Below, piece by piece: positions 27,697 to 61,293 of a stretch of 64,000 bases of DNA. The DNA is taken from NCBI GenBank assembly GCA_905221615.1, contig CAJNDT010004079.1:62001-126000 (forward strand). Direction: 5' to 3'. Numbering within the stretch: the first letter of the stretch is position 1; every line of letters begins with the position of its first letter. The notes beneath the pieces were generated by a model. The model had not been told where the DNA came from. It saw only the letters and a program-made list of their open reading frames with translations, and ran no database searches. The position numbers and the translations under genes are program-made. The DNA comes from Symbiodinium sp. CCMP2592 (Eukaryota; Sar; Dinophyceae; Suessiales; Symbiodiniaceae).

Positions 27697-27749
27697 GGGA
27701 GGCATTTTGCTCCAGCACGTGATTTCGGCACATACCTGATCCTGTTGCC
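27697..27749 (+). promoter_or_regulatory. Conserved 5' box, locus 1
   Basis: A block with GGGAGGCATTTT, GCTCCAGCACGTGATTT and CCTGTTGCC ends at the start codon. It is shared by all six loci (locus 1 is 5 bp shorter). It contains the palindrome CACGTG and a CAG that could serve as a spliced-leader acceptor. Confidence 0.6.
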
Positions 27750-28572
27750 ATGGCGACGATGCTAGGACTGGCCACTGGTCTTCAGGTGGGCATTCAAATC
27801 CACATTCCCATCTTAGGGTCCGGAGAGGTTTGAGGGTGCATCACCCCCGGCCTAAATCCCAGGCTTCAAAACTTCTCGTGGTTTTGGTTCAGGGTGTCGA
27901 GGGGTCAAAAGGGAACGTGGGTTTTCAGAAGTGTGGGAGGAGAGAGTTCCAGTTGTGGGGTTATGTTTCAATCGTTGGGCTCAGGGTCATACTGCAAAAA
28001 CAAGAAAGCATGCTTGAGGCTGGGTTCCTGGCTTTGCAAAAGGCTTTGGGTTGTCGTGCATCGGCCACCTGGGCTTCGAGGTCATGTTCGCGATCGTGAC
28101 GGCCGATGGAACCGGGACCACATCTGCCGGCTCCTGCTACAACATGCCACTCGGGCTCCGCGACTTTGAAGGTTTCGAGCTTTTCTAGTGAGACGTCGCA
28201 GCGGTAGCCAGCTTGTTGAAGGCTTCCACCTTTGAAATTTGAGGACGACGCACGCAGTGTCTTGCAACATGGCGGAGGTCGACTGCTCGGCTCCGCACAT
28301 GTGGTACGGTCCCGGCTACGTCTCCCCGCGCAGTGGCTGCTGCCATTGCGAGGCATCCTGTGTGAACACATCGGGGAACTGCACTTACTACGATGCGGTG
28401 GAGGGCCCTCAGGACAGCTCCGCACCCAAGAACCGGAGCATCACCCAAAGCTCGTCGAAGCTTCAAATCGACATGCCTCACAAGTTTATGGCATCTCCAC
28501 AGAATCTTGAATCGAATCGCAAGCCCTTGGACGGATGAGTTCAGCAATTGTAGCGGTAGCACTAGCGGTGGC

Positions 28573-28640
<68 letters not shown>

Positions 28641-30074
28641 CAGATATCGACCTGTAGTGCAAGGCGTGCCGCACAGTGCAGCATGGTACGGTTGATGTTG
28701 CACTCATTGTTAGTTCCTGAAGCATGGAGGAGAACTGGGGTTGCTATGAGCATTCCGCCCGCCAGTGCGATTGTCTTGTGTCGGAAGCCGGGTGCACAGC
28801 CAAAGGTGCAGGCCACACATGGACATCTGGATGCACTTCCTGTGCCTCACAAGGCTCTTGCTACGACATGACATCTCACAGCATCAGCTGCGATGTTCCC
28901 GAAACGTCGTGCTCGTCGCCGAACATGTGGTACGCACCGGGCTATGTCTCTCCGCGAAGTGGATGCTGCCACTGCAGGGCGTCCTGCAGAGAACCGGCAG
29001 ACAATTGCACCTACAGCGATGTGGTAGCGGCGGAGCTGGAGGACTGCCCACCGCCCTAGAAGCGCAATGCCGAGAGTGAGCCAGCCATAAGCCATCATAA
29101 GCCCCCAGATGACTGAGTTTTGTGAGTTCCTGAAGCATGGAGGAGAACTGGGGTTGCTATGAGCATGCTGCCCGCCAGTGCGATTGTCTTGTGTCCGAAG
29201 CAGGCTGCACAGCCAAAGGCACAGGCCACACATGGACATCTGGATGCAACTCATGTGCCTCACAAGGCTCTTGCTACGATATGACATCTCACAGCATCAG
29301 CTGCGATGTTCCCGAAACATCGTGCTCGTCGCCGAACACGTGGTATGCACCGGGCTACGTCTCCCCGCGAAGTGGATGCTGCCACTGCAGGGCGTCCTGC
29401 AAAGAGCCGGCCGACAACTGCTCGTACAGTGATGTGGAAGCGGAGACCCAGAGAGACTGGGGATGCTATGACTCGTCCACAAATGCCTGCGATTGCGACA
29501 CGACTGAAGCGGAGTGTTCCGGGTCCTGGACGCAGTCTTGCCGCAGCTGCAACGGAGAGGTGTCAACTTCTTCTGCAGGTCGTCCCAGAGGTTTCGTCCT
29601 TGCCCTGCTTGTGTTCCTCTACGGCTTCTTCGCAGCAGAAGCCAACACCGGCAGCGGCACAGGATGCTACAACGTGGAGACTCACCAGTGCGACTGCACA
29701 GTCTCCGAATCTACCTGCCATGCTCGGGGAGGCACCTGGACTGACACGTGTCGATCCTGCGATTCCACCACCAACGAGCAGCACCCCCAGTGCCAGAGGC
29801 AATACTCTTGGGGTTGCTTTGACGAGGCCAGTCATGCGTGTGAGTGCACCGTCTCCGAGAAAACCTGCGAAGCAGCGGCTGGCAAGACCTGGACTCATGA
29901 GTGCCTGGGTCTCTAAGCAATGCCGTCGTAGCCTTGCCATGCATGCTTGGTTTCGGAAAACAAGACGAAGCCCGTGTGCTAAGGTGCTGGTCCTGCTGCC
30001 ACGGCTCTTCTTGGGGCTGCTTCGTGCCGGGGAATGGCGCCGAGTCCGGCTGCCACTGCAACTTGTCGTCCTAA
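27750..30074 (+). CDS. Cys-rich secreted protein, locus 1 N-module
   Basis: Six exons are predicted by comparing paralogues: 27750-27785, 28081-28145, 28244-28397, 28730-29023, 29143-29900, 29984-30074. Together they give 465 residues with frame kept throughout. Introns are GT-AG except 28146-28243, which is GC-AG; splicing it restores an SCYNMTTHAVSC stretch matching the uninterrupted SCYDMTSHSISC of the next exon. Exons 1-2 form a signal peptide. The rest alternates two Cys motifs: GC(Y/F)-x6-CxC-...-W(T/S)xxCxxC, and one with WYAPGYVSPRSGCCHC. A hydrophobic segment (ALLVFLYGFFAAEA) lies inside exon 5, homologous to the signal peptide of the short loci. The family is not recognised. Confidence 0.7.
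28572..28640. repeat. TAG trinucleotide microsatellite in intron, locus 1
   Basis: A run of TAG/AGT repeats lies in the intron between exons 3 and 4. Poly-Ser, poly-Leu and poly-Tyr ORFs here are artefacts. Confidence 0.9.
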
Positions 30075-30515
30075 GCTTCAGAGGAATGCCCATGAGAACG
30101 ATCAGATGGAGCCACCTCCCAAGCCGACACGAAAGATTGTGGGACATGCCCGAGCAAACATGGAACGCGTCGGCCATGCTGTTGAACGGAGTGAAAAGCA
30201 TGATGGATCGTAGTAGGAGTTTAAACCTAAATGTTGCTCACGATTGCTTCCAAAGATTGAGAGTTAGCTGAGTTCTTGAGTGCGTCGAGCGGTTGAAGTC
30301 TTAACTCTTAACGGTACAGTAGTCAAGGCCCGAAGAACAATCCTGAAGCTTTGAGGCAACCTCCACGAGACATCGTGCAGCCTGGATTTCCCAGCCTCCT
30401 GTCGTGCTGAGGTTTCGCGGGTTCTGGGTTTCCCGACTTCAGATCTTGTTGTGGTGCTGGAGTTGCTCGCACGTTAGCGATTGGAGATTGGAGGCTTTCG
30501 ATATCCGCAGCTGAG
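30075..30515 (+). other. Region between N- and C-modules, locus 1
   Basis: This has no supported exon. It would be an intron if the two modules form one transcript, since a GC directly follows the TAA at 30072-30074 and an AG precedes 30516. The same arrangement occurs at every locus. Confidence 0.45.
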
Positions 30516-33500
30516 GATGCAACTTGGTCCCACCAATGCTTCGACTGCGACGTGGACGCAGAGACTTCTGCTGCGGGTCGTCCCACGGGTTTCGTCGTTG
30601 CCCTGCTGGTGCTCCTTTCCGGGTTCTTCATGGCAGATGCCAACACCGGCACGGGCACGGGATGCTACGACACGGAGACTCATCGATGCGACTGCACCGT
30701 CACCGAAACGCAGTGCCTGGCTCGGCAAGGTCACTGGACTGACACGTGCCGATCCTGCGATGCCACCACCAACGAGCAGCATCCCGATTGCCAGAGGCAA
30801 TACTCTTGGGGTTGCTTTGACGAGGCCAGTCATGCGTGCGAGTGCACCGTGTCCGAGCGGGCCTGCGACGCGGCGGCGGGCAAATCCTGGACCCATGAGT
30901 GCCTAAGTTTGCAGCTTCCTGTATGTTTGGGTCTCTCTTTTTTTTCGGATTCGGAAGCAGCACCCAACCACGTCCACCGAAGTTTCGATGTGGAAAGTAT
31001 CATAGGGAGAAGGACGGAGCCAATGTTATTTGCAATGGGACACCCTCCTGCAAGGTGCTGGTCGTGCTGCCACGGCTCTGCTTGGGGCTGCTTCGTGCCG
31101 GGGAATGGCCCAGAGTCCGGCTGCCACTGCAACTTCTCCTGTCAAGTCTGGTACTAGATCTGCTGCGTAACACCGCGCCATACACACATGACACAAGCAC
31201 CAGTTGGCCACAGTCCACAAGAGTCTGGATGTCACTTAGTTCACAGATGAGGTTCCGAGCGGCTAGGAGCAGAAATCCAGCATCGATCCCAAACCATTCG
31301 TTCTGTTGTTCGACATCGGCAGTTGTGTCAATAAATTCCGGGCTCGAGGGTTGAGGAACATCACATCCAATTCACACCCGGCTCCGCCAGCTTTCCCGGA
31401 ACTCCCGAATAGTTAGAGCTGCAGAAGCCGAACGTTCAATCCGCGCAGGGTCGCTAGGAAGGCTCTTGGAAGGTTATGCAAGAGACCGTCATGCGATCAG
31501 GCAACCTCTACGAGGGCGCGTGCGCCCTTGACTTCCCTGCCTCCAGTCTCATGGTAGAGAGGGGCGGAGGCTTTGCGTTGCATGCGTGTCCGACTTCGGC
31601 ATGTGTTAATGTTGTGATCCCTGCCGTGCCTGGCAGCTGCGTGTATGTGTGTGTGTGTGTGTCCAACTCTGTTTCCAAGAGACGCGAGTGAGTTAGGCAG
31701 CAGGGGGCAGAGGGTCTCATTTCACGGCCTCTGCCAACGAAGCTCCGTGATATTGAGACAGGTAAACGTACCTGCAGTGGTCGGCATGGGCACATTTGTG
31801 CAGCTTGCGACTACATAACTGTTGATTGCGGGTAGGAGTGCAGTGCAGTTTCATGTGCAGTTTCATGTGCAGTTACATGAGTGATTCGCGTGTATCCTAT
31901 GGTAATGCTTCTGATTGCATGTTCTGACTTTCCCGTGCAGCCTCTGACTTTCCCTGACAGCTGCTGACTTTCCCTGACAGTATGCACCGACAGATCAGAC
32001 CTGCGACACGATGTGTCAAGTGTGCTTCACAACGGCATTCCCTATGGGCGCCGTGTCTCCCAGAGGTAGCTCTTGCGCTGACTTTCCCGATTGACTGTAT
32101 AAGCATTGGATGACTTTCCCTGATTCTATATCCGTGCTTGCAAGCTGACTTTCTCAGTGAGTCTTTCCCAAATGCCTTTGCCGAAACCTGAATGCTGACT
32201 TTCCCACTGACTTTCTATGATCTGATTGACTTTCCCGAATCTGACTTCACCGCTGACTTGTCGCAGGTCTTCGGCTGCAAGTTGAGTACATGAGCTGTAC
32301 TTTTGGTAGTTGCTGATTCGCCGATCTCTTCTGTTTGCAATGTTGGATTGGGAACAGCAGATGTAGCTCCTGCCTCTGCATCCGCACATGCTGTAAGTGA
32401 TCGACCTGTTCCACAACAAGATGTTCCACCAGCCATCACTCTACACGCAGATGGTACAGGTTTCCGTCTGTCGTTTCGTTCAGTTGCCGATTTTGCAGTG
32501 CGGACCAGAAATACGTCTTTCGTGTTAAACCCCTGCGAGAATCTTACGAGCATCTTGGGAATCGAGCTCTTCTCAGAGGTCATGTGGAAGTAGAGTGGGA
32601 ACAAGATTCAAACTTCTTCGTGATTCCTGAACTTCGTGGGTTGGAAGTGCGTGATGAAGAAGGGAAGCTGATCCAAGTGTACTCAGCCAACTTCAATTGG
32701 GTCGCATTGTATCCCATGTTTACTGCTCTGCGCCCGCGTACCAAACTGCAACTCAGTGTTGCATGTACTTCAATGCAAGTGTATTGCAAGGGATGTGCAA
32801 GGGACGTGCAAATGATGCGCAAGGGATGTGCAAGGGTTAGGCAAGTGATCTGCCGGCAGCATGTGTTGTGAATATTTGCAGACACTGTTTTGATTCATGT
32901 CCTCAAGGCACTCTGCAGTTCTAAAAAGACTTGTAACGTACAGGTAGCTTCAAATTATGTCGGTGTCCAGTTTTGAGAGCGATGCTGCCTCTGTATCGGA
33001 CGTGCACTCGTCCGACTTTTCGTCAGACTTTGCAGTGTCGGACCAAGCTGGAGTGGTTCAGTACATGTTTTTGCTTGCTTGTGCGACTCGTAGACTGCAG
33101 TTTCGCGACATGAGTGCGGTTTGCATATGTTGGAATGCGTAGACTCTGCAGTTTCGTGACATGAGTGCGGTTTGCATATGTTGGAATGCGTAGACTCTGC
33201 AGTTTCGTGACAGGAGTGCGGCTCGCCTATGTTGGAATGCGTAGACTTCAGTTTCGTGTCATCGGTGCAGTTCGCCTATGTTGGAACGCGTAGACTCTGC
33301 AGTTTCGTGACACATGAGTGCGGTTCGCCGATGTTGGAATGCGTAGACTCTGCAGTTTCGTGACATGAGTGCAGTTCGCCGATGTTGGAATGCGTAGATT
33401 CTGCAGTTTCGTGACATGAGTGCGGTTCGCCGATGTTGGAATGCGTAGACTCTGCAGATTTGCGACATGAGTGCGGTTTGCTTATGTTGGAATGCGTAGA

Positions 33501-36500
33501 CTCTCTGACATGAGTGTGGTTCGCCTATGTTGGAACGCATAGACTCTGCAGTTTCGTAGACTTTCTGCTTTGAGACGATGCTGGAAATGATTGCTGAGAG
33601 TATTCTTGCCATGCAGCCCTATCCGATTGAATGACATAACGGAGAGTCCAGCAGTGCAGGTTTGCCGTGCAGCAAGTGTGAGCGCATACTCGTTTTGTAA
33701 TGGCAGACGAGGTCATTGATTGCAGTCTCCTGTGCATGGACTTTCTGTAGAGTGTTGGTGGATGCCCAATTGCTTTGCATCCTCGGTTTTGAACAATAAG
33801 AAAGCCCAGCACGATGCTGTATATTGGCTCTACAAGCGTCTCAGACTCTGCAGTTTCGTGACATGAGTGCGGCTCACCAATGTTGGAATGCGTAGACTTC
33901 AGTTTTGTGTCATCAGTGCGGTTCGCCTATGTTGGAATGCGTAGACTCTGCAGTTTCGTGACACATGAGTGCGGTTTGCCGATGTTGGAATGCGTAGACT
34001 CTGCAGTTTCGTGACATGAGTGCAGTTCGCCGATGTTGGAATGCGTAGTCTCTGCAGACTGGTGACATGAGTGTGGTTTGCCTATGTTGGAATGCGTAGG
34101 GCGTAGACTCTCTGACATGAGTGTGGTTCGCCTATGTTGGAATGCGTAGACTGTGCAGTTCCGTGACATGAGTGCGGTTCGCCGATGTTGGAATGCGTAG
34201 ATTCTGCAGTTTCGTGACATGAGTGCGGTTCGCTGATGTTGGAATGCGTAGACTCTGCAGATTTGCGACATGAGCGCGGTTTGCTTATGTTGGAATGCGT
34301 AGACTCTCTGACATGAGTGTGGTTCGCCTATGTTGGAACGCATAGACTCTGCAGTTTCGTAGACTTTCTGCAGTTGCAAAGAAGAGTCTGTTTGCCAGTG
34401 CTGCTGCAAGTATATTGCAAGGGATGTGCAAGGAACGCGCAAGTGATGTGCAAGGGATGTGCAAGGGTTATGCAAGTGATCTGCTGGCAGCATGTGTTGT
34501 GAATATTTGCAGACACTGTTTTGATTCATGTCCTCAAGGCACTCTCCAGGTCTAAAAAGACTTGTAACGTACAGGTAGCTTCAAATTATGTCGGTGTCCA
34601 GCTTTGAGAGCGATGCTGTCTCTGTATCGGACGTGCACTCGTCCGACTTCTCGTCAGACCTTGCAGTGTCGGACCAAGAACATGATCGACGTGCAGCTTT
34701 GGTATCAGGTGTTACCGCGGTCAGTGATCCGGGTTCCGCTGATTTCGCCTTTGATCATGAAAGCTCAAATGTGTCATCGTTCCTTGGCCGACAGTCTCCG
34801 TCAATGTCCCCTGGTCGATCAGTTCAGTTTCCAAAGTCGAACCGTTCCGCTGCAGAACACACCAACATGTCGAAGATTGTCCCGCCGCGGAAACGCAAGC
34901 TTCGTATGATTGATGAAGGTTCTGATGGTGCGCGTATCAAGATTCGTCCTGCACCTAGAGCCCAATTTCGTCGCAGAATGGAAAGCACGAGAGTGTTTGG
35001 TGACGACTTCTTCATCCACAACAGAGCCCAGTTCATTCTCGATTTCCTGAGACAACACGGGGAGCGCATTGCTAAAGAAAAGCATGGCCCTAGGAAGCGT
35101 TTTTCCTCTACTTTGAAACTTGTGCAGTACGTCTTAGACCGAAAGTGAGAGAGCGTTGACGGTTTGAAAAGAGTCCACCAATGCTTTGTGTCAACCGAAG
35201 TGATTAGCAAGGGAAGAGTAAGCGGATTGCAAGTGATGTGCAAGGGACGGTCGAGGTATGTGCAAGTGCTGTGCAGGAAATGTGCGGAGAGACATGTCAG
35301 GGATGTGCAAGTGCTGCGCCTTTGGGAGTTGCTTTCATCAGACATGGAATAGAGTTTTGTTTCAAGCAGTCTGGAAGTTTTGTAGATTCCGAACAACATG
35401 GATTGGGCCGCTTCTGACGTGCTCGAGAACATCTTGACGTACTTGTTGCCGATCAGAGCCAGAATCACATTCATTACTCGCCTTGATCGAAATGACGACC
35501 CAGAAGAGGCGCAACCCTTAACCGACACCTTGGTGGCCTACACGTTCTTGCAACGTGGGATACAAGAATTTCGGCTGTCCTCCTCGGTTGAGTTGACCAT
35601 GGGTTTTCAGTCTTTGCATACCACCATCCGTTTTGTTCAAATCAATGCCGTGGCCTGCACCATGTTGGGCAGCCCTTCCAAGAGGTGGATGCGTGCTGTG
35701 GTAGACCTAGCACAGGAGCGTTTGCGAGTGAGTATCGTGTCATTGGCCAATGCTGCGTACCAAACTGCAACTCAGTGTGGCATGTACTTCGATTCTGATG
35801 CAGAGGAAGCCGAAGTCGAATTGCACCTAGTGTACAGACTGCGTTTTCTGAAGTTTCGTAGCCCACTCTCCTAGTTCTCCCAAGGACAAGACGTTTCGAT
35901 GATAAATCGGTGAGAAAAACAGCGCGCAACGACCATCAACATTGCACGGAGCCCCTCGGGGCTTGTGTGTGTCCAACTCTGTTTCCAAGAGACGTGAGTG
36001 AGTTAAGCAGCAGGGGGACTCTGCAGTGTCGTCAGTATTACTGATTGCCTGCAATGCTTCAACAGCAACACATGAGCGCTTGCACCTGTTCAGCTTTGCT
36101 GGCTATGTTCCAGTCTTCGGCTGCAAGTTGAGTACATGAGCTGTACTTTTGGTAGTTGCGAAGTGGATTCCACCCCCCCCTCCCCTTCCCCCTCCCGCTT
36201 TCCCTCCTCCACCCCCCACTCCTGCAGTTTGCTCGATGCCATCTTCGTCATCTTTACCGATTTCTTCTGTATGCAATGTTGGATCGGGAACAGCAGATGT
36301 AGCTCCTGCCTCTGCAGTTGCAGCAATCTGCATGACTTCAGGGGTGATCTTGCAAGCGCTTTCAGTCATCTGTCTTGCCATGGGCCTGGAGACCTGTAAC
36401 CTAGAGTGACAGCTTGCGCGCTTTCAGTCATCTGTTTTGCAATGAGCCTGGAGACCCGTAACCTAGAGTGACGGTTTGTATGCTTTCAGTCATCTTTCTT

Positions 36501-36599
36501 ACGATGCGTCTGGAGTTCCGTAACCTAGAACTTGAAATCTCTGAGCTGACTTATCAAGCTGGCTTCTCGAGCTGACTTGAGACCTGTGACACATTGTGT

Positions 36600-36636
<37 letters not shown>

Positions 36637-38848
36637 AGACTGCGCTGTCGGGGTGCGCGTAGACCTTTCGGTTTCGTGACTTTAGCGCGGTTCGCCAGTG
36701 GCATGTGCATCTAGCTGACGCGTGACACGAGTGCGGTTTGCCTATGTTGGAATGCGTAGACTTCAGTGTCGTGACATGAGTGCGGTTCGCCTATGTTGGA
36801 ATGCGTAGACTCCGCAGTTTTGTGACATGAGTGCGGGTTGCTTGTATTGGAATGCATAGACTCTATGACATGAATGTGGTTCGCCTATGTTGGCATGCGT
36901 AGACTCTGCGGTTTCGTAGACTTTCCGCTTCCAGACGCTGGCATTTGTATGTCAACCGGTGTTTCGAGCAAGGGACGTGCACGTGATGTGCAGGGGATAT
37001 GCAAGTGATGTGCAAGGGACGTCCGCGGAATACGCTTTGGTCTCTGGTGGTCTGGTGGCGATCTGGGCAAGTGAGTGCATATTGTCATGCACTTTCAACG
37101 TCACTTCTTCGGACCTGTCTCTGTAACTCTTCTTGTTCGCAGTCGTCTAATCAAATCAGTTGATGACAACGACGACAACAATCCATAGACTCTGACTCTG
37201 CAGTTTTGTGACATGAGTGCGGTTCGCCTATGTTGGAATGCGTAGACCTTTCGGTTTCGTGACTTTAGTGCGGTTTGCCTATGTTGGAACGCAGTCAGTG
37301 TCGTGACATGAGTGCAGGAAATGTGCAGAGAGACATGTCAGGGATGTGCTAGTGCTGCGGTTTCGTGATCTTTGCATACCACCATACGTTTTGTTCAAAT
37401 CAATGCCGTAGCCTGCACCATGTTGGGCAGCATTTCCAAGAAGTGGATGCGTGCTGTGGTAGACCTAGTACAGGAGCGTTTGCGAGTGAGTATCGTGTCA
37501 GACGTTTTGATGCAAAAATCGGTGAGAAAAACAGCGCGCAACGACCATCAACACTGCACGGAGCCCTTCGGGGCTTGTGTGTGTGTCCAACTCTGTTTCC
37601 AAGAGACGCGAGTGAGTTAGGCAGCAGGGGGCAGAGGGTCTCATTTCACGGCCTCTGCCAACGAAGCTCCGTGATATTGAGGCAGGTAAACGTACCTGCA
37701 GTGGTCGGCATGGGCACATTTGTGCAGCTTGCGACTACACAACTGTTGATTGCGGGTAGGAGTGCAGTGCAGTTTCATGTGCAGTTTCATGTGCAGTTAC
37801 ATGAGTGATTCGCGTGTATCCTATGGCCTATGGTAATGCTTCTGATTGCATGTTCTGACTTTCCCTTGCAGCTTCTGACTTTCCCTGACAGCTGCTGACT
37901 TTCCCTGACAGTATGCACCGACAGATCAGACCTGCGACACGATGTGTCAAGTGTGTGGGGAACTCCTGTTGAGCCCGTTGGCAACTGAGGACGCAACTTG
38001 GTCCCACCAGTGCTTCGAGTGCGAAGAGGATGCGGTGCCCAGAACGCGCACTAGTTAGTTCCAGTGGGGGAGCAGCAAGCGTTTTGAAACGTAACGTCGT
38101 GTAACTTTATTTGCATATTGTAGGTCTCGTTTGTTCAGGCTCTGCGCTTGAGTCTTTGGGTGCGGCGTTTTGCAGTTCTTCTTTTGATGCCTGCTAGCAT
38201 CTGAAGAATGTGCACGTCGCGCTCGATTTTCCGCAGTTTGCAGAGTGCCAGCTCTTTGCCGCCGTGATCGCGAACCCCAAGCCGTAGACTGTAGACTCCC
38301 CAGCAAAGGTAAGCGCACCCCAAATCCGACATACTGCAACGCATGGCACCTTGCAGGTGCAGAAGGATGTGGAGGCGGCTGTGGACGATGGGGGCGTCGG
38401 GGTTGCTGTGGCCGTGTCACGGCTATTCTTCAGCAACGGGTTGTTGGGACGACTGACGACGAATGGCTTGCTGAAGCTTTAGGTTTTGTCCCATCATGGC
38501 TCATGCCCTGATATGAGTCGTTCAGAGCCTACCAATCCGCCACTGGAAGCTTGGAAGCAGCTGAGGTGTCCGTTTCGGTCACAGTCGTTGTGGTTGCTGC
38601 ATGCATTGGCATCTACTGCCTCTGGGCCAAGATGATTAAACCAAAGCCGGTGAACGAGCCGCGGCTCGGCACCACCTTGTGCTCAAAATCCCGCGTCCCA
38701 GTCGTTGAGCACCGAAAAACCTTCATCGTCTGTCCTCTGCATGCCGAGGTACAACAGCCCGCAGTTCAATCAGTCAGATGTGGTGGTGGGTCTGGCCGTG
38801 CCGAGTTCGGCTCCATCCCCTGCTGCAAGTCCCAAAGAGGTTGCTTGA
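30516..38848 (+). CDS. Cys-rich membrane protein, locus 1 C-module (intron carries insertion)
   Basis: Predicted exons: 30516-30898, 31055-31145, 37990-38034, 38357-38475, 38550-38657, 38749-38848, totalling 846 nt in frame. They encode Cys motifs (DATWSHQCFDC, then CYDTETHRCDC and WGCFDEASHACEC), a hydrophobic ALLVLLSGFF segment, and WSCCHGSAWGCF. A juxtamembrane stretch (VQKDVEAAVDDGG), a transmembrane helix (VTVVVVAACIGIYCLWA) and a tail ending SPKEVA follow. No start codon or signal peptide has been found, so this part may depend on the N-module exons. The intron 31146-37989 is 6.8 kb because a repeat-bounded element lies in it. The last two introns use GC donors. Confidence 0.6.
31640..31662. 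repeat. GT microsatellite at the insertion point, locus 1
   Basis: GTGTATGTGTGTG-type sequence in the intron marks the left edge of the inserted element. Counterparts without insertion are at about 47253-47266, 50954-50977, 54757-54815 and 60389-60402. Confidence 0.8.
31661..32024 (+). repeat. Left terminal direct repeat
   Basis: It begins GTCCAACTCTG and ends ATGTGTCAAGTGTG. An internal partial copy of the start lies at about 35968-36015, and of the end at about 36580-36610. Confidence 0.85.
31923..32245 (+). repeat. CTGACTTTCCC repeat cluster
   Basis: About a dozen copies of (G)CTGACTTTCCC are spaced irregularly, starting inside the left terminal repeat and extending beyond it. Confidence 0.65.
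32584..32871 (+). CDS. Hypothetical ORF inside the element
   Basis: A 95-residue frame has a plausible globular first part (FFVIPELRGLEVRDEEG). Its last third is read from GTGCAAGGGAT repeats. The preceding frame (32303-32593) also looks partly coding (ADGTGFRLSFRSVADFAVR), so the two may be exons of one gene. Not recognised. Confidence 0.3.
   Translation: MEVEWEQDSNFFVIPELRGLEVRDEEGKLIQVYSANFNWVALYPMFTALRPRTKLQLSVACTSMQVYCKGCARDVQMMRKGCARVRQVICRQHVL
32775..32948 (+). repeat. GTGCAAGGGAT repeat and duplicated flank, copy 1
   Basis: About 170 bp, including several GTGCAAGGGAT units and the AATATTTGCAGACACTG flank, recurs almost unchanged at about 34405-34585. Shorter GTGCAAG clusters lie near 35225-35320 and 36960-37025. 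Confidence 0.7.
32957..33050 (+). pseudogene. Truncated copy of the Ser/Asp-rich ORF
   Basis: The first ~30 codons match the ORF at 34588 (MSVSSFESDA...), then the sequence runs into the 51-bp repeat array. Confidence 0.6.
33095..33560. repeat. 51-bp tandem repeat array, block 1
   Basis: Units of about 51 bp contain GTAGACTCTGCAGTTTCGTG, ACATGAGTGCGG and TTCGCCTATGTTGGAATGC. Units vary by point changes and some lack the CTGCAG part. The same repeat forms block 2 (33845-34375) and partial blocks near 36655-36920 and 37195-37310. Confidence 0.85.
33845..34375. repeat. 51-bp tandem repeat array, block 2
   Basis: Same repeat family as block 1, with a unit order suggesting that the two blocks and their flanks arose by duplication. 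Confidence 0.85.
34588..35148 (+). CDS. Ser/Asp-rich protein with basic motif, inside the element
   Basis: A 186-residue ORF from ATG 34588. The first ~60 residues are rich in Ser and Asp (SSDFSSDLAVSD). A basic PPRKRKLR stretch that could be a nuclear localisation signal sits near residue 100. The C-terminal half is basic and helical (HNRAQFILDFLRQHGERIAK). No family is recognised. Its truncated twin at 32957 shows it belongs to the duplicated content of the element. It may be a DNA-binding or structural protein. Confidence 0.45.
   Translation: MSVSSFESDAVSVSDVHSSDFSSDLAVSDQEHDRRAALVSGVTAVSDPGSADFAFDHESSNVSSFLGRQSPSMSPGRSVQFPKSNRSAAEHTNMSKIVPPRKRKLRMIDEGSDGARIKIRPAPRAQFRRRMESTRVFGDDFFIHNRAQFILDFLRQHGERIAKEKHGPRKRFSSTLKLVQYVLDRK
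35398..35874 (+). CDS. Hypothetical protein, possible F-box-like start
   Basis: A 158-residue ORF begins with a DVLENILTYLLPIRARITF segment that resembles the helical start of F-box domains, though key positions are uncertain. A later Leu/Val-rich part includes a MRAVVDLAQERL helix. About 130 bp encoding that part recur at 37367-37500 with small changes, so part of this gene has been duplicated within the element. Confidence 0.4.
   Translation: MDWAASDVLENILTYLLPIRARITFITRLDRNDDPEEAQPLTDTLVAYTFLQRGIQEFRLSSSVELTMGFQSLHTTIRFVQINAVACTMLGSPSKRWMRAVVDLAQERLRVSIVSLANAAYQTATQCGMYFDSDAEEAEVELHLVYRLRFLKFRSPLS
36603..36633. repeat. GT microsatellite inside the element
   Basis: A run of about fourteen GT units follows a partial copy of the terminal-repeat end (TGTGTCAAGTGTG). 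It marks an internal junction like those at the element ends. Confidence 0.8.
37585..37955 (+). repeat. Right terminal direct repeat
   Basis: Copy of 31661-32024 with an extra CCTATGG and a few substitutions. The Cys-rich gene intron resumes directly after it. Confidence 0.85.
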
Positions 38849-39619: not shown

Positions 39620-40104
39620 ATGGCGACGGTTTCTCTGCTAGTGCTCCTCCACGGCTTCTTCGCAGCAGAAGCCAACACCGGCAGCGGCACAGGATGCTAC
39701 AACGTGGAGACTCACCAGTGCGACTGCACAGTCTCCGAATCTACCTGCCATGCTCGGGGAGGCACCTGGACTGACACGTGTCGATCCTGCGATTCCACCA
39801 CCAACGAGCAGCACCCCCAGTGCCAGAGGCAATACTCCTGGGGTTGCTTTGACGAGGCCAGTCATGCTTGTGAGTGCACCGTCTCCGAGAAAACCTGCGA
39901 AGCAGCGGCTGGCAAGACCTGGACTCATGAGTGCCTGGGTCTCTAAGCAATGCCGTCGTAGCTTTGCCATGCATGCTTGGTTTCGGAAAACAAGACGAAG
40001 CCCGTGTGCTAAGGTGCTGGTCCTGCTGCCACGGCTCTTCTTGGGGCTGCTTCGTGCCGGGGAATGGTCCCGAGTCCGGCTGCCACTGCAACTTGTCGTC
40101 CTAA
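39620..40104 (+). CDS. Short Cys-rich secreted protein, locus 2 N-module
   Basis: Two exons, 39620-39930 and 40014-40104, join through an 83-bp GT-AG intron to give 133 residues. The start (MATVSLLVLLHGFFAAEA) is a clear signal peptide. Two and a half Cys motifs follow: CYNVETHQCDC with TWTDTCRSC, WGCFDEASHACEC with TWTHEC, then (after the junction) WSCCHGSSWGCF and GCHCNLSS. The splice is supported because HEC|WSCC restores the WTxxCxxC pattern of the other repeats. It ends at TAA 40102-40104. Confidence 0.75.
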
Positions 40105-40539
40105 GCTTCAGAGGAATGCCCATGAGAACGATCAGATGGAGCCGCCTCCCAAGCCGACACGAAGGATTGTGGGACATGCCCGGGCAAACATGGAACGCGT
40201 CGGGCATGCGGATGAACGGAGTGAAATGCATGATGGATCGTAGTAGGAGTTTAAACCTAAATGTCGCTCACGGTTGCTTCCAAAGATCTGAGAGTTCGCT
40301 GAGTTCTTGAATGCGTCGAGCTGTTGACGTCTTAACTGTACAGTAGTCAAGGCCCGCAGAACAATCATGAAGCTTTGAGGCAACCTCCACGAGACATCGT
40401 GCAGCCTGGATTTCCCAGCCTCCTGTCGTGCTGAGGTTTCGCGGGTTCTGGGTTTCCCGACTTCAGATCTTGTTGTGGTGCTGGAGTTGGTGGCAGGTAA
40501 GCGATTGGAGATTGGCGGCTTTCGATATCCGCAGCTGAG

Positions 40540-42612
40540 GATGCAACTTGGTCCCACCAATGCTTCGACTGCGACGTGGATGCAGAGACTTCTGCAGCGG
40601 GTCGTCCCACGGGTTTCGTCGTTGCCCTGCTGGTGCTCCTTTCGGGGTTCTTCATGGCAGATTCCAACACCGGCACGGGCACGGGATGCTACGACACGGA
40701 GACTCATCGATGCGACTGCACCGTCACAGAAACGCAGTGCCTGGCTCGGCAAGGTCACTGGACTGACACATGCCGATCCTGCGATGCCACCACCAACGAG
40801 CAGCATCCCGATTGCCAGAGGCAATACTCTTGGGGTTGCTTTGACGAGGCCAGTCATGCGTGCGAGTGCACCGTCTCCGAGCGGGCCTGCGACGCGGCGG
40901 CGGGCAAATTCTGGACCCATGAGTGCCTAAGTTTGCAGCTTCTTGTATGTTTGGGTCTCTCTTTTTTTTCGGATTCGGAAGCAGCACCCAACCACGCCCA
41001 CCGAAGTTTCGATGTGGAAAGTATCATAGGGAGAAGGACAGAGCCAATGTGATGTTTGCAATGGGCAAGGTGCTGGTCGTGCTGCCGCGGCTCTGCTTGG
41101 GGCTGCTTCGTGCCGGGCAATGGCCCAGAGTCCGGCTGCCACTGCAACTTGTCCTGTCAAGTCTGTTGGTACTAGATCTGCTTCGTAACACCGCGCCATA
41201 CACACATGACATAAGCGTCAGTTGGCCACAGTCCACAAGAGTCTGGATGTCACCCAGTTCACAGATGAGGTTGGGAGAGGCTGGGAGCAGAAAGCCAGCA
41301 TCGAACCTAAAACATGACTTTCGTTGTGTTGTTCGGCATCGGCAGTAGCTTCTTAATTTCGAGCTCGAGGGTTGAGGAACATCACGCGTCCATTCACACC
41401 CGGCTGCGCCAGCTCTCCCGAAACTCCCAAATAGTTGGAGCTGCAGAAGCCGGACAGTTCAAAACGAGCAGGGTGGCTAGCAAGGCTCCTGGAAGGTAGA
41501 GCAAGTTATGCAAGAGACCGTCGTGCGAACAGGCAACCTCTACGAGGGCGCGTGCACCCTTGACTTCCCTGCTGCCAGTCTCATGCTAGAGAGGGGTGGA
41601 GGCTTTGCGTTACATGCGTGTCCGACTTCGGCATGTGTTGATGTTGTGATCCATGCCGTGCCTGGCAGCTGCCTGTATGCGTGTGGGGAACTCCAGTTGA
41701 GCCCGTTGGCAACTGAGGACGCAACTTGGTCCCACCAGTGCTTCGAGTGCGAAGAGGATGCGGTGCCCAGAACGTGCATTAGTTCGTTCCAGTAGGAAAC
41801 AAGAACCTTGAAACTTACTATTGTGTAGCTTTATTGGCATATTGTAGGTCTCGTTTGTTCAGGCTTTGCGCTTGAGTCTTTGGGTGCGGCGTTTTGCAGT
41901 TCTTCTTTTGATGCCCGCTAGCACCTGAAGAATGTGCACGTCGCGCTCGATTTTCCGCAGTTTGCAGAGTGCCAGCTCTTTGCCGGCGTGATCGCGAACC
42001 CCAAGCCGTAGACTGTAGACTCCCCAGCAAAGGTAAGCGCACCCCAAATCCGACATACTGCAACACATGGCACCTTGCAGGTGCAGAAGGATGTGGAGGC
42101 GGCTGTGGACGATGGGGGCGTCGGGGTTGCTGTGGCTGTGTCACGGCTATTCTTCAGCAGCGGGTTGTTGGGACGACTGACGACGAATGGCTTGCTGAAG
42201 CTTTAGGTTTTGTCCCATCATGGCTCATGCCCTGATATGAGTCGTTCAGAGCCTACCAATCCGCCACTGAAAGTTTGGAAGCAGCTGAGGTGTCCGTTTC
42301 GGTCACAGTCGTTGTGGTTGCTGCATGCATTGGCATCTACTGCCTCTGGGCCAAGATGATTAAACCAAAGCCGGTGAACGAGCCGCCGCTCGGCAACACC
42401 TTCTGCTCAAAATCCCACGTCCCAGTCGTTGAGATCTGAAAAACCTTCAATTAGAGGAATCGATGAGGGAAACGGGCATTCGAAGTCCATCGTCTGTCCT
42501 CTGCATGCCGAGGTACAACAGCCCGCAGTTCAATCAGTCAGACGTGGTGGTGGGCTTGGCCGTTCCGGGAACGGCTCCATCCTCTGCTGCAACTCCCAAA
42601 GAGGTTGCTTGA
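40540..42612 (+). CDS. Cys-rich membrane protein, locus 2 C-module
   Basis: Exons 40540-40922, 41070-41160, 41718-41762, 42081-42199, 42274-42381 and 42513-42612 have the same lengths as at locus 1 (383, 91, 45, 119, 108, 100 nt) and keep frame. This is the uninterrupted version of the intron that carries the insertion in locus 1. The second exon reads SCCRGSAWGC, with Arg in place of His. The transmembrane helix and the tail ending TPKEVA are intact. The 5' start is unresolved. Confidence 0.6.
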
Positions 42613-44310: not shown

Positions 44311-44372
<62 letters not shown>

Positions 44373-46268: not shown

Positions 46269-48157
46269 GATGCAACTTGGTCCCACCAATGCTTCGACTG
46301 CGACGTGGATGCAGAGACTTCTGCAGCGGGTCGTCCCACAGGTTTCGTCGTTGCCCTGCTGGTGCTCCTTTCTGGGTTCTTCATGGCAGATTCCAACACC
46401 GGCACGGGCACGGGATGCTACGACACGGAGACTCATCGATGCGACTGCACCGTCACCGAAACGCAGTGCCTGGCTAGGCAAGGTCACTGGACTGACACGT
46501 GCCGATCCTGCGATGCCACCACCAACGAGCAGCATCCCGATTGCCAGAGGCAATACTCTTGGGGTTGCTTTGACGAGGCCAGTCATGCGTGCGAGTGCAC
46601 GGTGTCCGAGCGGGCCTGCGACACGGCGGCGGGCAAATCCTGGACCCATGAGTGCCTAGGTTTGCAGCTCCCTGTGTATTTGGGTCTCTCATTTTTTTGG
46701 ATTCGGAAGCAGCACCCAATCACGTCCACCGAAGTTTCGATGTGGAACATATCATAGGGAGAAGGACAGAGCCAACGTGATGTTTGCGTTTGCGATGGGA
46801 CACCCTCCTGCCTGCAAGGTGCTGGTCGTGCTGCCACGGCTCTGCTTGGGGCTGCTTTGTGCCGGGGAATGGCCCAGAGTCCGGTTGCCACTGCAACTTG
46901 TCATACCAATATGTTAGAATATGTGCTAACCGACCACAGAAGAAGTATGAGTACACAAGAGCTTGGATGTCAACCAGTTAGGAGATGAGATATTGAACTG
47001 CTCGGAGCATGAAGCTAGCAGAGAAACCGAAATCATTGGGAAGGCTCCTGAAACTGCGGCAACTTATGCAAGAGACCGTCATTTGATCAGGCAACCTCTA
47101 CGAGGGCGCGTGCGCGCTTGACTTTCCTGCCGCAAGTCTCATGGTATAGACAGGGGTGGAGGCTTTGCGTTTCGTGCATGTCCGACTTCGGGGATGTGTT
47201 GATGTTCTGATCCCTGCAGCTCCTGGCAGAGTTGGCTTTCTAGAGCTTTCTCTCTGTGTGTGTGTCCGTTCGCAACTGAGGACGCAACTTGGTCGCACCA
47301 GTGCTTCGAGTGCGAAGAGGATGCGGTGCCCGGGACGTCTTTAGGCGGTTTAGTGCGGGGGCTTTTCAGGCTTAACTTTAACATTGTGTGACGTTATCTG
47401 TATATTGTAGTCTATTTATTTGTCTTTGCATTTGAGTCTTTGTGTGAGGCGTTTCACAGTCATTTTCTTGACGGAGCGTAGCACCTGAAGGCTGTGCATT
47501 GTGCACGTGGCGCTCGATTATCCGTTTTCAAAGTACGAGCGCGCCGCTGTCATACTCGCGAACCTTCAGCCATCTTAAGCCGTAGACCTCCCGGCAAGGG
47601 GAAGCTCACCCGAAATCCGACAAGCTTGCAGCGCATGGCGCCCTGCAGGTGCGGAAGGATGTGGAGGCGGCTGTGGACGATGGGGGCGTCGGGGTTGCTG
47701 TGGCCGTGTCACGGCCGTTCTTCAGCAACGGGTTGTTGGGACGACTGACGACAAATGGCTTGCTGAAGCTTTAGATTTTGTCCTATATATCATAGCTCAT
47801 GCCCTGATATGAGTCGTTCCTACAATCCTCCACGGGAAGTTTGGAAGCAACTGAGGTGTCCGTTTCGGTCACAGTCGTTGTGGTTGCTGCATGCATTGGC
47901 ATTTACTGCCTCTGGGCCAAGATGATGAAACCAAAGCCGGTGAACGAGCCGCGGCCCGGCTCCATCGCTCAAAATCCCGCGTCCCAGTCGTTGTGCTCCG
48001 CAAAACCTATGCATTCGAAATCCATACTCTGTCGTCTGGGCATGTCTGGACACCGAGGTACAACAGCCCGCAGTTCAATCAGTCAGATGTGGTGGTGGGC
48101 TTGGCCGTTCCGGGAACGGCTCCATCCTCTGCTGCAACTCCCAAAGAGGTTGCTTGA
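46269..48157 (+). CDS. Cys-rich membrane protein, locus 3 C-module
   Basis: Exons 46269-46651, 46819-46909, 47281-47325, 47649-47767, 47840-47947 and 48058-48157. The end of exon 2 differs from loci 1, 2, 4 and 5: a Cys is lost (NLSYQ instead of NFSCQ or NLSCQ) and the GT donor after CAA is changed to TA, with a GT three bases on. The following intron is shorter and its GT microsatellite is nearly lost. Transmembrane helix and tail are intact. This copy may be less functional. Confidence 0.55.
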
Positions 48158-48931: not shown

Positions 48932-49416
48932 ATGGCGACGGTTTCCCTGCTAGTGCTCCTCCACGGCTTCTTCGCAGCAGAAGCCAACACCGGCAGCGGC
49001 ACAGGATGCTACAACGTGGAGACTCACCAGTGCGACTGCACAGTCTCCGAATCTACCTGCCATGCTCGGGGAGGCACCTGGACTGACACGTGTCGATCCT
49101 GCGATTCCACCACCAACGAGCAGCACCCCCAGTGCCAGAGGCAATACTCCTGGGGTTGCTTTGACGAGGCCAGTCATGCTTGTGAGTGCACCGTCTCCGA
49201 GAAAACCTGCGAAGCAGCGGCTGGCAAGACCTGGACTCATGAGTGCCTGGGTCTCTAAGCAATGCCGTCGTAGCCTTGCCATGCATGCTTGGTTTCGGAA
49301 AACAAGACGAAGCCCGTGTGCTAAGGTGCTGGTCCTGCTGCCACGGCTCTTCTTGGGGCTGCTTCGTACCGGGGAATGGCGCCGAGTCCGGCTGCCACTG
49401 CAACTTGTCGTCCTAA
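48932..49416 (+). CDS. Short Cys-rich secreted protein, locus 4 N-module
   Basis: Exons 48932-49242 and 49326-49416 (83-bp intron) give 133 residues, nearly identical to locus 2. Signal peptide, Cys motifs and TAA are as described there. Confidence 0.75.
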
Positions 49417-54750: not shown

Positions 54751-54816
<66 letters not shown>

Positions 54817-57446: not shown

Positions 57447-57502
<56 letters not shown>

Positions 57503-58976
57503 CAGTAGCAGTAGCAGTAGTAGCAGTAGCAGATGTCGACCTGTAGTGCAAGTCGTGCCGCACAGTGTAGCATGGTATGGTTGATGTTGCACTCATTGTT
57601 AGTTCCTGAAGCATGGAGGAGAACTGGGGTTGCTATGAGCATGCTGCCCGCCAGTGCGATTGTCTTGTGTCGGAAGCCGCGTGCACAGCCAAAGGTGCAG
57701 GCCACACATGGACATCTGGATGCACTTCCTGTGCCTCACAAGGCTCTTGCTACGACATGACATCTCACGCGATCAGCTGCGATGTTCCCGAGACGTCGTG
57801 CTCGTCGCCGAACATGTGGTATGCACCGGGCTACGTCTCCCTGCGAAGCGGATGCTGCCACTGCAGGGCGTCCTGCAAAGAGCCGGCGGACAACTGCACT
57901 TACAGCGATGCGGTCGCGCCGGAGGACTGCCCACCGCCACAGAAGCACAATTTCCATGCCGAGAGCGCATAGAAGCTTTGAGCCAGCCACAAGCCATCAT
58001 AAGCCCCCAGATGACTGAGTTTTGTGAGTTCCTGAAGCATGGAGGAGAACTGGGGTTGCTATGAGCATGCCGCCCGCCAGTGCGATTGTCTTGTGTCCGA
58101 AGCAGGCTGCACAGCCAAAGGCACAGGCCACACATGGACATCTGGATGCACTTCCTGTGCCTCACAAGGCTCTTGCTACGATATGACATCTCACAGCATC
58201 AGCTGCGATGTTCCCGAAACATCGTGCTCGTCGCCGAACATGTGGTATGCACCGGGCTACGTCTCCCCGCGAAGCGGATGCTGCCACTGCAGGGCGTCCT
58301 GCAAAGAGCCGGCGGACAACTGCTCGTACAGTGATGTGGAAGCGGAGACGCAGAGAGACTGGGGATGCTATGACTCGTCCACAAATGCCTGCGATTGCGA
58401 CACGACTGAAGCGGAGTGTTCCGGGTCCTGGACGCAGTCTTGCCGCAGCTGCAACGGAGAGGTGCCAACTTCTTCTGCAGGTCGTCCCAGAGGTTTCGTC
58501 CTTGCCCTGCTTGTGTTCCTCTACGGCTTCTTCACAGCAGAAGCCAACACCGGCAGCGGCACAGGATGCTACAACGTGGAGACTCACCAGTGCGACTGCA
58601 CAGTCTCCGAATCAACCTGCCATGCTCGGGGAGGCACCTGGACTGACACGTGTCGATCCTGCGATTCCACCACCAACGAGCAGCATCCCCAGTGCCAGAG
58701 GCAATACTCTTGGGGTTGCTTTGACGAGGCCAGTCATGCGTGCGAGTGCACCGTCTCCGAGAAAACCTGCGAAGCAGCGGCTGGCAAGACCTGGACTCAT
58801 GAGTGCTTGGGTCTCCAAGCGATGCCGTCGTAGCCTTGCCATGCATGCTTGGTTTCGGAAAACTAGACGAAGCCCGTGTGCTAAGGTGCTGGTCCTGCTG
58901 CCACGGCTCTTCTTGGGGCTGCTTCGTGCCGGGGAATGGCGCCGAGTCCGGCTGCCACTGCAACTTGTCGTCCTAA
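56554..58976 (+). CDS. Cys-rich secreted protein, locus 6 N-module
   Basis: Exons 56554-56595, 56831-56886, 56997-57150, 57619-57912, 58045-58802 and 58886-58976 give 464 residues. Near-identical to locus 3, with a few substitutions (for example a TSGCTSC in exon 5 where locus 3 has TSGCNSC) and a TAG microsatellite three bases longer. Ends at the shared TAA. Confidence 0.7.
57361..57533. repeat. TAG/CAG microsatellite in intron, locus 6
   Basis: Counterpart of 44228-44397. Confidence 0.9.
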
Positions 58977-59404
58977 GCTTCAGAGGAATGCCCATGAGAA
59001 CGATCAGATGGAGCCGCCTCCCAAGCCGACACGAAAGATTATGGGACATGCCCGGGCAAACATGGAACGCGTCGGGCATGCGGATGAACGGAGTGAAATG
59101 CATGATGGATCGTAGTAGGAGTTTAAACCTAAATGTTGCTCACGGTTGCTTCCAAGGATCTGAGAGTCAGCTGAGTTCTTAAGTGTGTCGAGCTGTTGAC
59201 GTCTTAACTGTACAGTAGTCAAGGCCCGCAGAACAATCATGAAGCTTTGAGGCAACCTCCACGAGACATCGTGCAGCCTGGATTTCCCAGCCTCCTGTCG
59301 CGCTGAGGTTTTGCAGGTTTTGGATTTTCGACTCTAGATCTTGTTGTGGTGCTAGAGCTGCTCGCCAGGTTAGCGATTGGAGGCTTTCGATATCCGCAGC
59401 TGAG

Positions 59405-61293
59405 GATGCAACTTGGTCCCACCAATGCTTCGACTGCGACGTGGATGCAGAGACTTCTGCAGCGGGTCGTCCCACAGGTTTCGTCGTTGCCCTGCTGGTG
59501 CTCCTTTCTGGGTTCTTCATGGCAGATTCCAACACCGGCACGGGCACGGGATGCTACGACACGGAGACTCATCGATGCGACTGCACCGTCACCGAAACGC
59601 AGTGCCTGGCTCGGCAAGGTCACTGGACTGACACGTGCCGATCCTGCGATGCCACCACCAACGAGCAGCATCCCGATTGCCAGAGGCAATACTCTTGGGG
59701 TTGCTTTGACGAGGCCAGTCATGCGTGCGAGTGCACGGTGTCCGAGCGGGCCTGCGACACGGCGGCGGGCAAATCCTGGACCCATGAGTGCCTAGGTTTG
59801 CAGCTCCCTGTGTGTTTGGGTCTCTCATTTTTTTGGATTCGGAAGCAGCACCCAATCACGTCCACCGAAGTTTCGATGTGGAACATATCATAGGGAGAAG
59901 GACAGAGCCAACGTGATGTTTGCGTTTGCGATGGGACACCCTCCTGCCTGCAAGGTGCTGGTCGTGCTGCCACGGCTCTGCTTGGGGCTGCTTTGTGCCG
60001 GGGAATGGCCCAGAGTCCGGTTGCCACTGCAACTTGTCATACCAATATGTTAGAATATGTGCTAACCGACCACAGAAGAAGTATGAGTACACAAGAGCTT
60101 GGATGTCAACCAGTTAGGAGATGAGATATTGAACTGCTCGGAGCATGAAGCTAGCAGAGAAACCGAAATCATTGGGAAGGCTCCTGAAACTGCGGCAACT
60201 TATGCAAGAGACCGTCATTTGATCAGGCAACCTCTACGAGGGCGCGTGCGCGCTTGACTTTCCTGCCGCAAGTCTCATGGTATAGACAGGGGTGGAGGCT
60301 TTGCGTTTCGTGCATGTCCGACTTCGGGGATGTGTTGATGTTCTGATCCCTGCAGCTCCTGGCAGAGTTGGCTTTCTAGAGCTTTCTCTCTGTGTGTGTG
60401 TCCGTTCGCAACTGAGGACGCAACTTGGTCGCACCAGTGCTTCGAGTGCGAAGAGGATGCGGTGCCCGGGAAGTCTTTAGGCGGTTTAGTGCGGGGGCTT
60501 TTCAGGCTTAACTTTAACATTGTGTGACGTTATCTGTATATTGTAGTCTATTTATTTGTCTTGGCATTTGAGTCTTTGTGTGAGGCGTTTCACAGTCATT
60601 TTCTTGACGGAGCGTAGCACCTGAAGGCTGTGCATTGTGCACGTGGCGCTCGATTATCCGTTTTCAAAGTACGAGCGCGCCGCTGTCATACTCGCGAACC
60701 TTCAGCCATCTTAAGCCGTAGACCTCCCGGCAAGGGGAAGCTCACCCGAAATCCGACAAGCTTGCAGCGCATGGCGCCCTGCAGGTGCGGAAGGATGTGG
60801 AGGCGGCTGTGGACGATGGGGGCGTCGGGGTTGCTGTGGCCGTGTCACGGCCGTTCTTCAGCAACGGGTTGTTGGGACGACTGACGACAAATGGCTTGCT
60901 GAAGCTTTAGATTTTGTCCTATATATCATGGCTCATGCCCTGATATGAGTCGTTCCTACAATCCTCCACGGGAAGTTTGGAAGCAACTGAGGTGTCCGTT
61001 TCGGTCACAGTCGTTGTGGTTGCTGCATGCATTGGCATTTACTGCCTCTGGGCCAAGATGATGAAACCAAAGCCGGTGAACGAGCCGCGGCCCGGCTCCA
61101 TCGCTCAAAATCCCGCGTCCCAGTCGTTGTGCTCCGCAAAACCTATGCATTCGAAATCCATACTCTGTCGTCTGGGCATGTCTGGACACCGAGGTACAAC
61201 AGCCCGCAGTTCAATCAGTCAGATGTGGTGGTGGGCTTGGCCGTTCCGGGAACGGCTCCATCCTCTGCTGCAAGTCCCAAAGAGGTTGCTTGA
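59405..61293 (+). CDS. Cys-rich membrane protein, locus 6 C-module
   Basis: Exons 59405-59787, 59955-60045, 60417-60461, 60785-60903, 60976-61083 and 61194-61293. Each lies exactly 13,136 bp from its locus 3 counterpart and shares the same lost Cys and changed donor at the end of exon 2. The tail ends SPKEVA as in locus 1. Confidence 0.55.

What the first reader, a model, noticed from the sequence alone, without database searches (positions are those of the whole stretch)
27697..61293. Six-locus array of a Cys-rich, receptor-like gene family with resolved exon structure
The sequence shows six loci with the same 5' box, signal peptide, alternating Cys motifs, transmembrane helix and short tail. 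Exon borders inferred by aligning paralogues keep frame in all twelve modules (N-modules 402, 1395 or 1398 nt; C-modules 846 nt each). I recognise no named domain in the two Cys motifs. Order is long-short-long-short-short-long. A surface or secreted role is inferred from the signal peptide and helix.
Basis: partly seen in the sequence, partly recalled or inferred. Interest (0 to 1): 0.8.

Follow-up and report, generated by a model that had tools for sequence, protein, structure and literature searches.

The report
Six-gene array of cysteine-rich surface proteins
A Symbiodinium-type dinoflagellate carries six intact tandem copies of a gene for a cysteine-packed membrane protein built from a small module that the searched domain libraries do not name, a module that some marine proteins attach to iron- and copper-type domains.

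Summary
The array is real. A spliced alignment to relatives gives six complete, in-frame genes in the order long-short-long-short-short-long (643/404/642/404/404/642 aa), ending exactly at 61293. Introns have the GC/GT/GA...AG|G form reported for Symbiodinium; dN/dS between copies is 0.07-0.17.

The ectodomain is built from one Cys-module family in two forms, A and B: long = ABAB+BBB+BBB, short = BBB+BBB, then one transmembrane helix and a tail. No Pfam family reached its cut-off on the module, and no PDB match was significant. Relatives occur in Symbiodiniaceae and Prorocentrum; module A also in pelagophytes and Triparma, and fused to Fea1 or DUF305 in marine proteins.

One of them is the N-terminal signal peptide of the short genes, which lack a ~1.9-kb block whose edge lies in codon 3.

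Most likely: multi-module type I surface proteins, receptor- or adhesin-like, possibly metal-linked. Function and topology are inferred, not shown.

The parts
27750..38848 (+). Gene L1 (long), 13 exons: 27750-27785, 28081-28145, 28244-28412, 29143-29900, 29984-30057, 30356-30393, 30516-30898, 31055-31128, 31501-31538, 37990-38034, 38357-38413, 38566-38660, 38749-38845 + TGA; 643 aa
   Evidence: spliced alignment; intact
39620..42612 (+). Gene S2 (short), 10 exons, 404 aa
43421..48157 (+). Gene L3 (long), 13 exons, 642 aa
48932..51909 (+). Gene S4 (short), 10 exons: 48932-49242, 49326-49399, 49678-49715, 49832-50214, 50363-50436, 50811-50848, 51010-51054, 51378-51434, 51587-51681, 51810-51906 + TGA; 404 aa
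52717..55746 (+). Gene S5 (short), 10 exons, 404 aa
56554..61293 (+).
28730..29023 (+). Possible extra in-frame exon 3b of L1 (B+A module, 294 nt, AG|G acceptor, GT donor), in intron 3
44483..44776 (+). Possible exon 3b of L3 (294 nt, open, same splice signals)
57619..57912 (+). Possible exon 3b of L6 (294 nt, identical to that of L3)
45353..45406 (+). Internal signal-peptide-like segment 1 in exon 4 of L3 (RGFVLALLVFLYGFFTAE, residues 238-255); its counterpart is the N-terminal signal peptide of the short genes
   Evidence: coordinates worked out from the exon list
46269..46651 (+). Exon of L3 holding internal segment 2 (PTGFVVALLVLLSGFFMADS); homologous exons in all six genes
48932..48942 (+). 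Start of S4: homology to the 5' box of L3 ends at 48939 (codon 3) and homology to exon 4 of L3 resumes at 48942, so S4 lacks L3 43429-45365
   Evidence: query 1-740 against 42655-43428; 743-2247 against 45366-46902
61416..61798 (+). Further partial copy of the upstream box, with no complete gene behind it in the window
   Evidence: spliced alignment of 61300-64000 scores -178
31652..37955 (.). LTR-like insert in intron 9 of L1, terminal direct repeats 31652-32024 / 37576-37955 at 97%

Best explanation
The six loci are intact, duplicated genes of a family of modular, disulfide-rich type I membrane proteins found in Symbiodiniaceae and Prorocentrum. Shown by sequence: complete spliced reading frames under purifying selection; one Cys-module family (A and B); a final hydrophobic helix of about 30 residues with acidic residues before and basic residues after; a tail motif (about PYNSPxxxxSDVVVGxA in Symbiodiniaceae, core VVVG in Prorocentrum, VVVG or IVVG in two MMETSP transcripts). 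Inferred: the N-terminal signal sends the chain into the ER; each block between hydrophobic segments (28, 20 and 20 Cys in the long form, 20 and 20 in the short) folds by internal disulfide pairing in the lumen; the final helix anchors the protein with the tail in the cytosol. At the surface the blocks act as a ligand-binding or adhesive stalk and the tail couples to a partner inside. The array raises dosage and varies ectodomain length (long/short, perhaps an extra A-B exon). The internal signal-peptide-like segments are relics of in-frame fusion of once separate signal-peptide-bearing units. Module A's presence in Fea1 and DUF305 proteins suggests, weakly, a metal-related surface role.
For: Models and controls. 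Introns: 33 GC, 27 GT, 3 GA donors and 63 of 63 AG|G acceptors; Symbiodinium is reported to use GC about as often as GT, also GA, and AG often followed by G (PMC4083563, passages). The aligner allowed only GT/GC/GA...AG, so those types were imposed; the G after AG was not. dN/dS 0.07-0.17 in 15 of 15 pairs over the shared part and 0.07-0.15 in the three long-gene pairs over the ABAB part. Cys counts between segments are even in 6 of 6 genes, and the last block has 20 Cys in 7 of 7 relatives checked. Final-helix charge pattern in 11 of 11 relatives with such a helix (read). Relatives: 35 hits, 120 hits (capped: only the 7990 candidates sharing most words were scored). P0038 and P0011 lie on contigs of transcript size (1531 and 1130 nt); P0040, P0041 and P0044 list MMETSP as a source. 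Fea1 in 24 and DUF305 in 4 of 120 hits (precomputed); six of them re-scanned, six confirmed (P0018; P0067, P0070, P0072, P0077, P0110).
Against: No transcript of this genome was available; expression is inferred from relatives. The N-terminal signal of the long genes is weak by my measure (L1 just passes, L3 and L6 do not); if it fails, the ABAB block would stay in the cytosol. If the internal segments insert as true helices, the blocks after them would alternate sides and the tail would not be cytosolic in both gene types. No trained signal-peptide or topology predictor was run. No experiment supports surface location, ligand or metal binding. The Fea1/DUF305 fusions concern module A only, which the short genes lack. 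Foldseek found nothing for P0007 and only four insignificant matches for P0017 (E 7 or more), so the fold gives no functional hint.
Confidence: 0.6

Rival explanations
1. Secretory polyprotein: the internal segments still work as signal peptides, and signal peptidase cuts after them, so one mRNA yields separate Cys units, the last one membrane-anchored.
For: In the 14 relatives that I counted, a K or R lies just before or at the start of the internal segment and an Ala sits at the -1 position of a likely cleavage site, with a small residue at -3 in 13 of 14 (read by eye; P0009 and P0013 left out, see Tried and rejected). The counterpart of segment 1 is the N-terminal signal peptide in the three short genes. 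An internal segment is present in Prorocentrum P0041, which lists MMETSP among its sources. Dinoflagellates express polyproteins for light-harvesting proteins, luciferase and Rubisco II (PMC11453091, PMC3480386, passages).
Against: A segment of ~19 residues reached from the lumen is expected to act as a stop-transfer, not as a signal (general knowledge). In the window's own segment 2 the -1 residue is Ser in five of six genes. The documented dinoflagellate polyproteins are not secretory-pathway surface proteins, as far as the passages show. No trained predictor was run.
Confidence: 0.15
2. Metal-binding surface proteins: A/B modules bind or help to deliver iron or copper, as accessories of a phytotransferrin-like uptake system.
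For: Module A is fused to Fea1 in 24 and DUF305 in 4 of 120 hits; several have His/Asp-rich tracts beside it (P0067, P0077, P0087, P0094; P0101, P0122); P0070 scores 50 bits against NCBIfam CopM, under its cut-off of 90.
Against: No Fea1 or DUF305 in the window's ORF pieces or in spliced L3, and no His-rich tract is visible in L3 or S4; even Cys counts argue for disulfides rather than free metal thiolates; module A also occurs in proteins with no metal domain found (P0019, P0020).
Confidence: 0.2
3. Structural coat or wall proteins: rigid disulfide-linked spacers of the cell covering rather than receptors.
For: Repetitive Cys-rich stalk; P0017 and P0039 end in a short hydrophobic stretch as in GPI-anchored proteins (by eye).
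Against: A similar tail in the anchored forms suggests coupling to the inside.
Confidence: 0.15
4. Decayed or unexpressed copies.
For: No expression data for this genome; one copy carries a 6.3-kb insert.
Against: Six of six frames intact, dN/dS well below 1; the insert lies in an intron.
Confidence: 0.04

Closest known systems
AK812_SmicGene314 (P0003), Symbiodinium microadriaticum, uncharacterised
   Same: Same MAT... start, same two B-module units; its two units fall in the same two clades as the window's N and C units
   Different: The public model skips the WSCC exon and has no N-terminal A-B part; no function assigned
P0036/P0037 (ENA, unnamed; P0042, named S. necroappetens, carries a near-identical C-terminal part)
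   Same: A-B repeats, internal segment, BBB unit, helix, tail
   Different: Four and three A-B repeats and a single BBB unit
P0041, Prorocentrum cordatum, labelled 'TNFR-Cys domain-containing'
   Same: B repeats, internal hydrophobic segment, BBB unit, helix, VVVG in the tail
   Different: No A module; no Pfam family up to E 10, so the label is not supported here
Fea1 proteins with an attached Cys module (P0067, P0077, P0110, P0152); Fea1 as the phytotransferrin domain is recalled
   Same: Carry module A
   Different: Main domain is Fea1, not found in the window genes
pTF.CatCh1 / ISIP2b of diatoms (PMC7972479, passages)
   Same: Cys-rich, CXC and CXXC motifs; pTF.CatCh1 has a predicted transmembrane domain near its C terminus
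   Different: Homology not tested; sequences were not in hand; described as heterokont-specific

Membership tests
Phytotransferrin (Fea1, PF07692) | Fea1 domain | tested here: not met
   None in the spliced L3 protein or in P0036 up to E 10
Phytotransferrin (Fea1, PF07692) | Attached Cys module A (seen in 24 Fea1 hits; not a published criterion that I found) | tested here: met
   long genes only
TNF-receptor Cys family | TNFR Cys-domain match in Pfam | tested here: not met
   No such match up to E 10 for L3, P0041, P0036, P0040, P0044 (HMMER filters drop most weak matches)
SP-Cys module-TM-tail family (P0005-P0007, P0015, P0036-P0038, P0040, P0041) | BBB unit with CWSCC and ATWSxxC motifs | tested here: met
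SP-Cys module-TM-tail family (P0005-P0007, P0015, P0036-P0038, P0040, P0041) | Final helix with acidic-before, basic-after charges and a VVG-type tail | tested here: met
   (P0040 reads IVVG, the others VVVG)
Dinoflagellate polyproteins (LHC, Rubisco II, luciferase) | Repeated units in one reading frame | tested here: met
   Two BBB units per gene
Dinoflagellate polyproteins (LHC, Rubisco II, luciferase) | Cleavage into separate mature units | not testable with these tools
   Only a likely signal-peptidase site by eye
Type I surface receptor | Surface location and ligand | not testable with these tools
   none

The most novel reading that the evidence does not exclude
A dinoflagellate secretory polyprotein: internal, still functional signal peptides between 20-Cys units let one gene deliver several surface units, and the short genes arose (or the long ones grew) by a block whose edge in codon 3 switches the same segment between internal and N-terminal signal peptide.
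Probability: 0.15. Interest if true: 0.65.

Novelty: new variant of a known kind. Interest (0 to 1): 0.42.

Why it matters
Modules A and B match no Pfam family at its cut-off and no solved structure in the searches made, yet relatives occur in dinoflagellates, pelagophytes, Triparma and marine metagenome proteins, some with iron- or copper-type domains. Naming the module would let a set of 'dark' surface proteins be annotated. The array is also a natural series (with and without the A-B block) for testing how an internal signal-peptide-like segment behaves in a secreted chain.

Tried and rejected
So the copy number outside the window is unknown, and the species is inferred only from relatives.

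Solved structures: phmmer one chance hit at E 0.8; profiles of A3 and A4 none up to E 1. Foldseek none for P0007, VIA none of 5 chains for P0007, four insignificant matches for P0017. The AlphaFold models are modest (pLDDT 72.1 and 68.7, pTM 0.27 and 0.36): in P0007 several modules are confident, their arrangement is not.

Weak domain matches not used: PF17463 (GP79) on module A of P0009, E 0.0008, 19.8 bits under the cut-off of 25; low-scoring helix matches. NCBIfam was run on eight relatives only, not on window proteins. P0012 (29 weak or repeat-driven families) and P0042 (fused to 'ytbE') look like faulty public gene models.

Rows dropped before counting internal segments: P0013, whose hydrophobic stretch has no basic residue before it and whose model seems to run upstream of the Met that starts P0015; and P0009, whose stretch ends three residues before the end of a truncated model. 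Counts (14 internal segments, 11 final helices) cover the 25 relatives examined there, of the 166 proteins found. One search gave dN 0.038-0.040 for L1 against L3/L6 in the N part, but without aligning an indel; redid it from TSAGSC on (dN 0.015-0.017).

Viral origin: one scan (P0015) gave 5 pattern matches, none a relative. Spliced-leader relic: none within 3 mismatches. Literature: seven searches, of which three were aimed at this family, showed no paper on it in the listings; that is no proof that none exists.
Full report
Setting. The window looks like nuclear DNA of a Symbiodinium-type dinoflagellate. Named relatives of the array are from Symbiodinium microadriaticum, S. pilosum, S. necroappetens, Symbiodinium sp. 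CCMP2456 and Effrenium voratum. The species is not established, because the own-genome search did not complete.

The array. Repeat finding and a self-comparison show six head-to-tail units, long-short-long-short-short-long, and a further partial upstream box at 61416-61798. I wrote a protein-to-genome spliced aligner and used as query a chimera of three relatives (P0002, P0003, P0011), not the window itself. It returned six complete genes: three long with 13 exons (643, 642, 642 aa) and three short with 10 exons (404 aa). All frames are intact and end in TGA. Scores are 2030-2034 for the short and 3241-3300 for the long genes. Controls: three shuffled short queries 45-50, reverse strand 14, an unrelated stretch 20; the long query on the stretch after the array -178. 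Upstream, five genes share about 770-810 nt, but L1 only about 70 nt before its ATG.

Introns and selection. Of 63 introns 33 start GC, 27 GT and 3 GA, and 63 of 63 acceptors read AG|G. This agrees with the published Symbiodinium pattern (PMC4083563, passages). The dinucleotides were imposed by the aligner, the G after AG was not. Over the shared 1158 nt, dN/dS is 0.07-0.17 in all 15 pairs (the L3-L6 pair rests on five changes). Over the ABAB part of the long genes, aligned from TSAGSC, it is 0.15, 0.15 and 0.07. Between the N and C units of one gene it is 0.21-0.31. A 294-nt stretch (3b) in intron 3 of all three long genes is open, in phase, with AG|G acceptor and GT donor, and shows dN 0.033 against dS 0.188 between L1 and L3; L3 and L6 are identical there. 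It may be an extra exon, since relatives P0036 and P0037 have four and three A-B repeats; its use is not shown.

Modules. Profiles built from the hits resolve the ectodomain into A (~57 aa, GSCY...H.V.C.V...C...WY.PGYV...SGCCHC..SC...C.YY) and B (~36 aa, WGCY...H.CDC..SE..C....WT..C.SC): long = ABAB BBB BBB, short = BBB BBB. A and B align at hhalign probability 93.6 over 25 columns, so they are probably two forms of one module. Cys counts between hydrophobic segments are 28, 20, 20 in the three long and 20, 20 in the three short genes; in seven relatives the N block has 22 to 56 Cys, even each time, and the last block 20. AlphaFold of relative P0007 gives confident single modules (hairpin, short helix, strand) and poor overall arrangement (pLDDT 72.1, pTM 0.27); no solved structure matches significantly.

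Relatives. One search found 35 and one search found 120 proteins (capped list of candidates). The tail core VVVG reaches Prorocentrum (P0041) and an MMETSP transcript (P0044); P0040, also MMETSP, reads IVVG. The organisms of P0040 and P0044 were not shown in the listing. Module A occurs in Pelagomonas, another pelagophyte (P0030; taxid checked) and Triparma. It is fused to Fea1 in 24 and to DUF305 in 4 of the 120 hits (precomputed domains; six re-scanned, six positive). In one search (66 hits from P0019) three bear Fea1 and three DUF305, two of the latter already counted. Many of these hits look like close kin, so the counts are not independent events. In a tree of the BBB units, N units and C units form two clades (99/98 and 98/93), each holding one unit of S. 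microadriaticum P0003 (both lacking the WSCC exon in the public model). So the doubling probably predates the split from that species; 12 of 20 inner branches are drawn open, and P0041, P0044 and P0040 are long branches.

Internal signal-peptide-like segments. Besides the final helix, short genes have one and long genes two internal hydrophobic stretches of about 19 residues. In 14 of 14 relatives counted (P0009 and P0013 left out) a basic residue precedes or starts the stretch and an Ala lies where a signal peptidase could cut; in the window's second segment that residue is Ser in five of six genes. The final helix has the opposite charge order in 11 of 11 (read by eye, no trained predictor). 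The short gene S4 matches L3 up to codon 3 and again from 45366 onward, so 43429-45365 is the block between. The counterpart of segment 1 is thus internal in one type and the N-terminal signal peptide in the other. P0003 shows the same junction (MAT + ISLL). If the internal stretches crossed the membrane, the Cys blocks would lie on alternating sides, which fits neither the even Cys counts nor the tail. I therefore favour blocks that all end in the lumen, with the segments as relics of unit fusion, and leave cleavage open. Against this: the long genes' own N-terminal stretch is weak (L1 just passes my threshold, L3 and L6 do not).

Function. Receptor- or adhesin-like surface protein is the best reading of the anatomy. 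A metal-related role is a lead from domain company, not a result. Tandem arrays and polyproteins are known in dinoflagellates (PMC11453091, PMC3480386, PMC8045281, passages). The array as such is ordinary; the unnamed module and the segment switch are what deserve attention.

Noticed in passing
594-5239: A ~1.7-kb tandem repeat with two U6 snRNA matches on the minus strand (752-852, 2476-2585).
   Followed up: partly
6518-15332: Copia-type retrotransposon ORFs (zinc knuckle, RVT_2).
   Followed up: no
23178-26759: ORF with a caspase domain followed by a dynamin-type GTPase domain, and a further long ORF, upstream of the array.
   Followed up: no
31652-37955: LTR-like insert with 97% identical terminal repeats and a 51-nt minisatellite, inside intron 9 of L1.
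   Followed up: partly
28573-28640, 44226-44393, 57359-57529: AGT microsatellite between exon 3 and stretch 3b in all three long genes.
   Followed up: no
62165-62293 and 63784-63949: Telomere-like repeats (GGGTTTA and CCTAAAC units) downstream of the array.
   Followed up: no
P0163, P0166: Module A also occurs in a DUF305 protein (P0163) and in a protein with precomputed PF01079 (P0166; 'Hint' is recalled).
   Followed up: no
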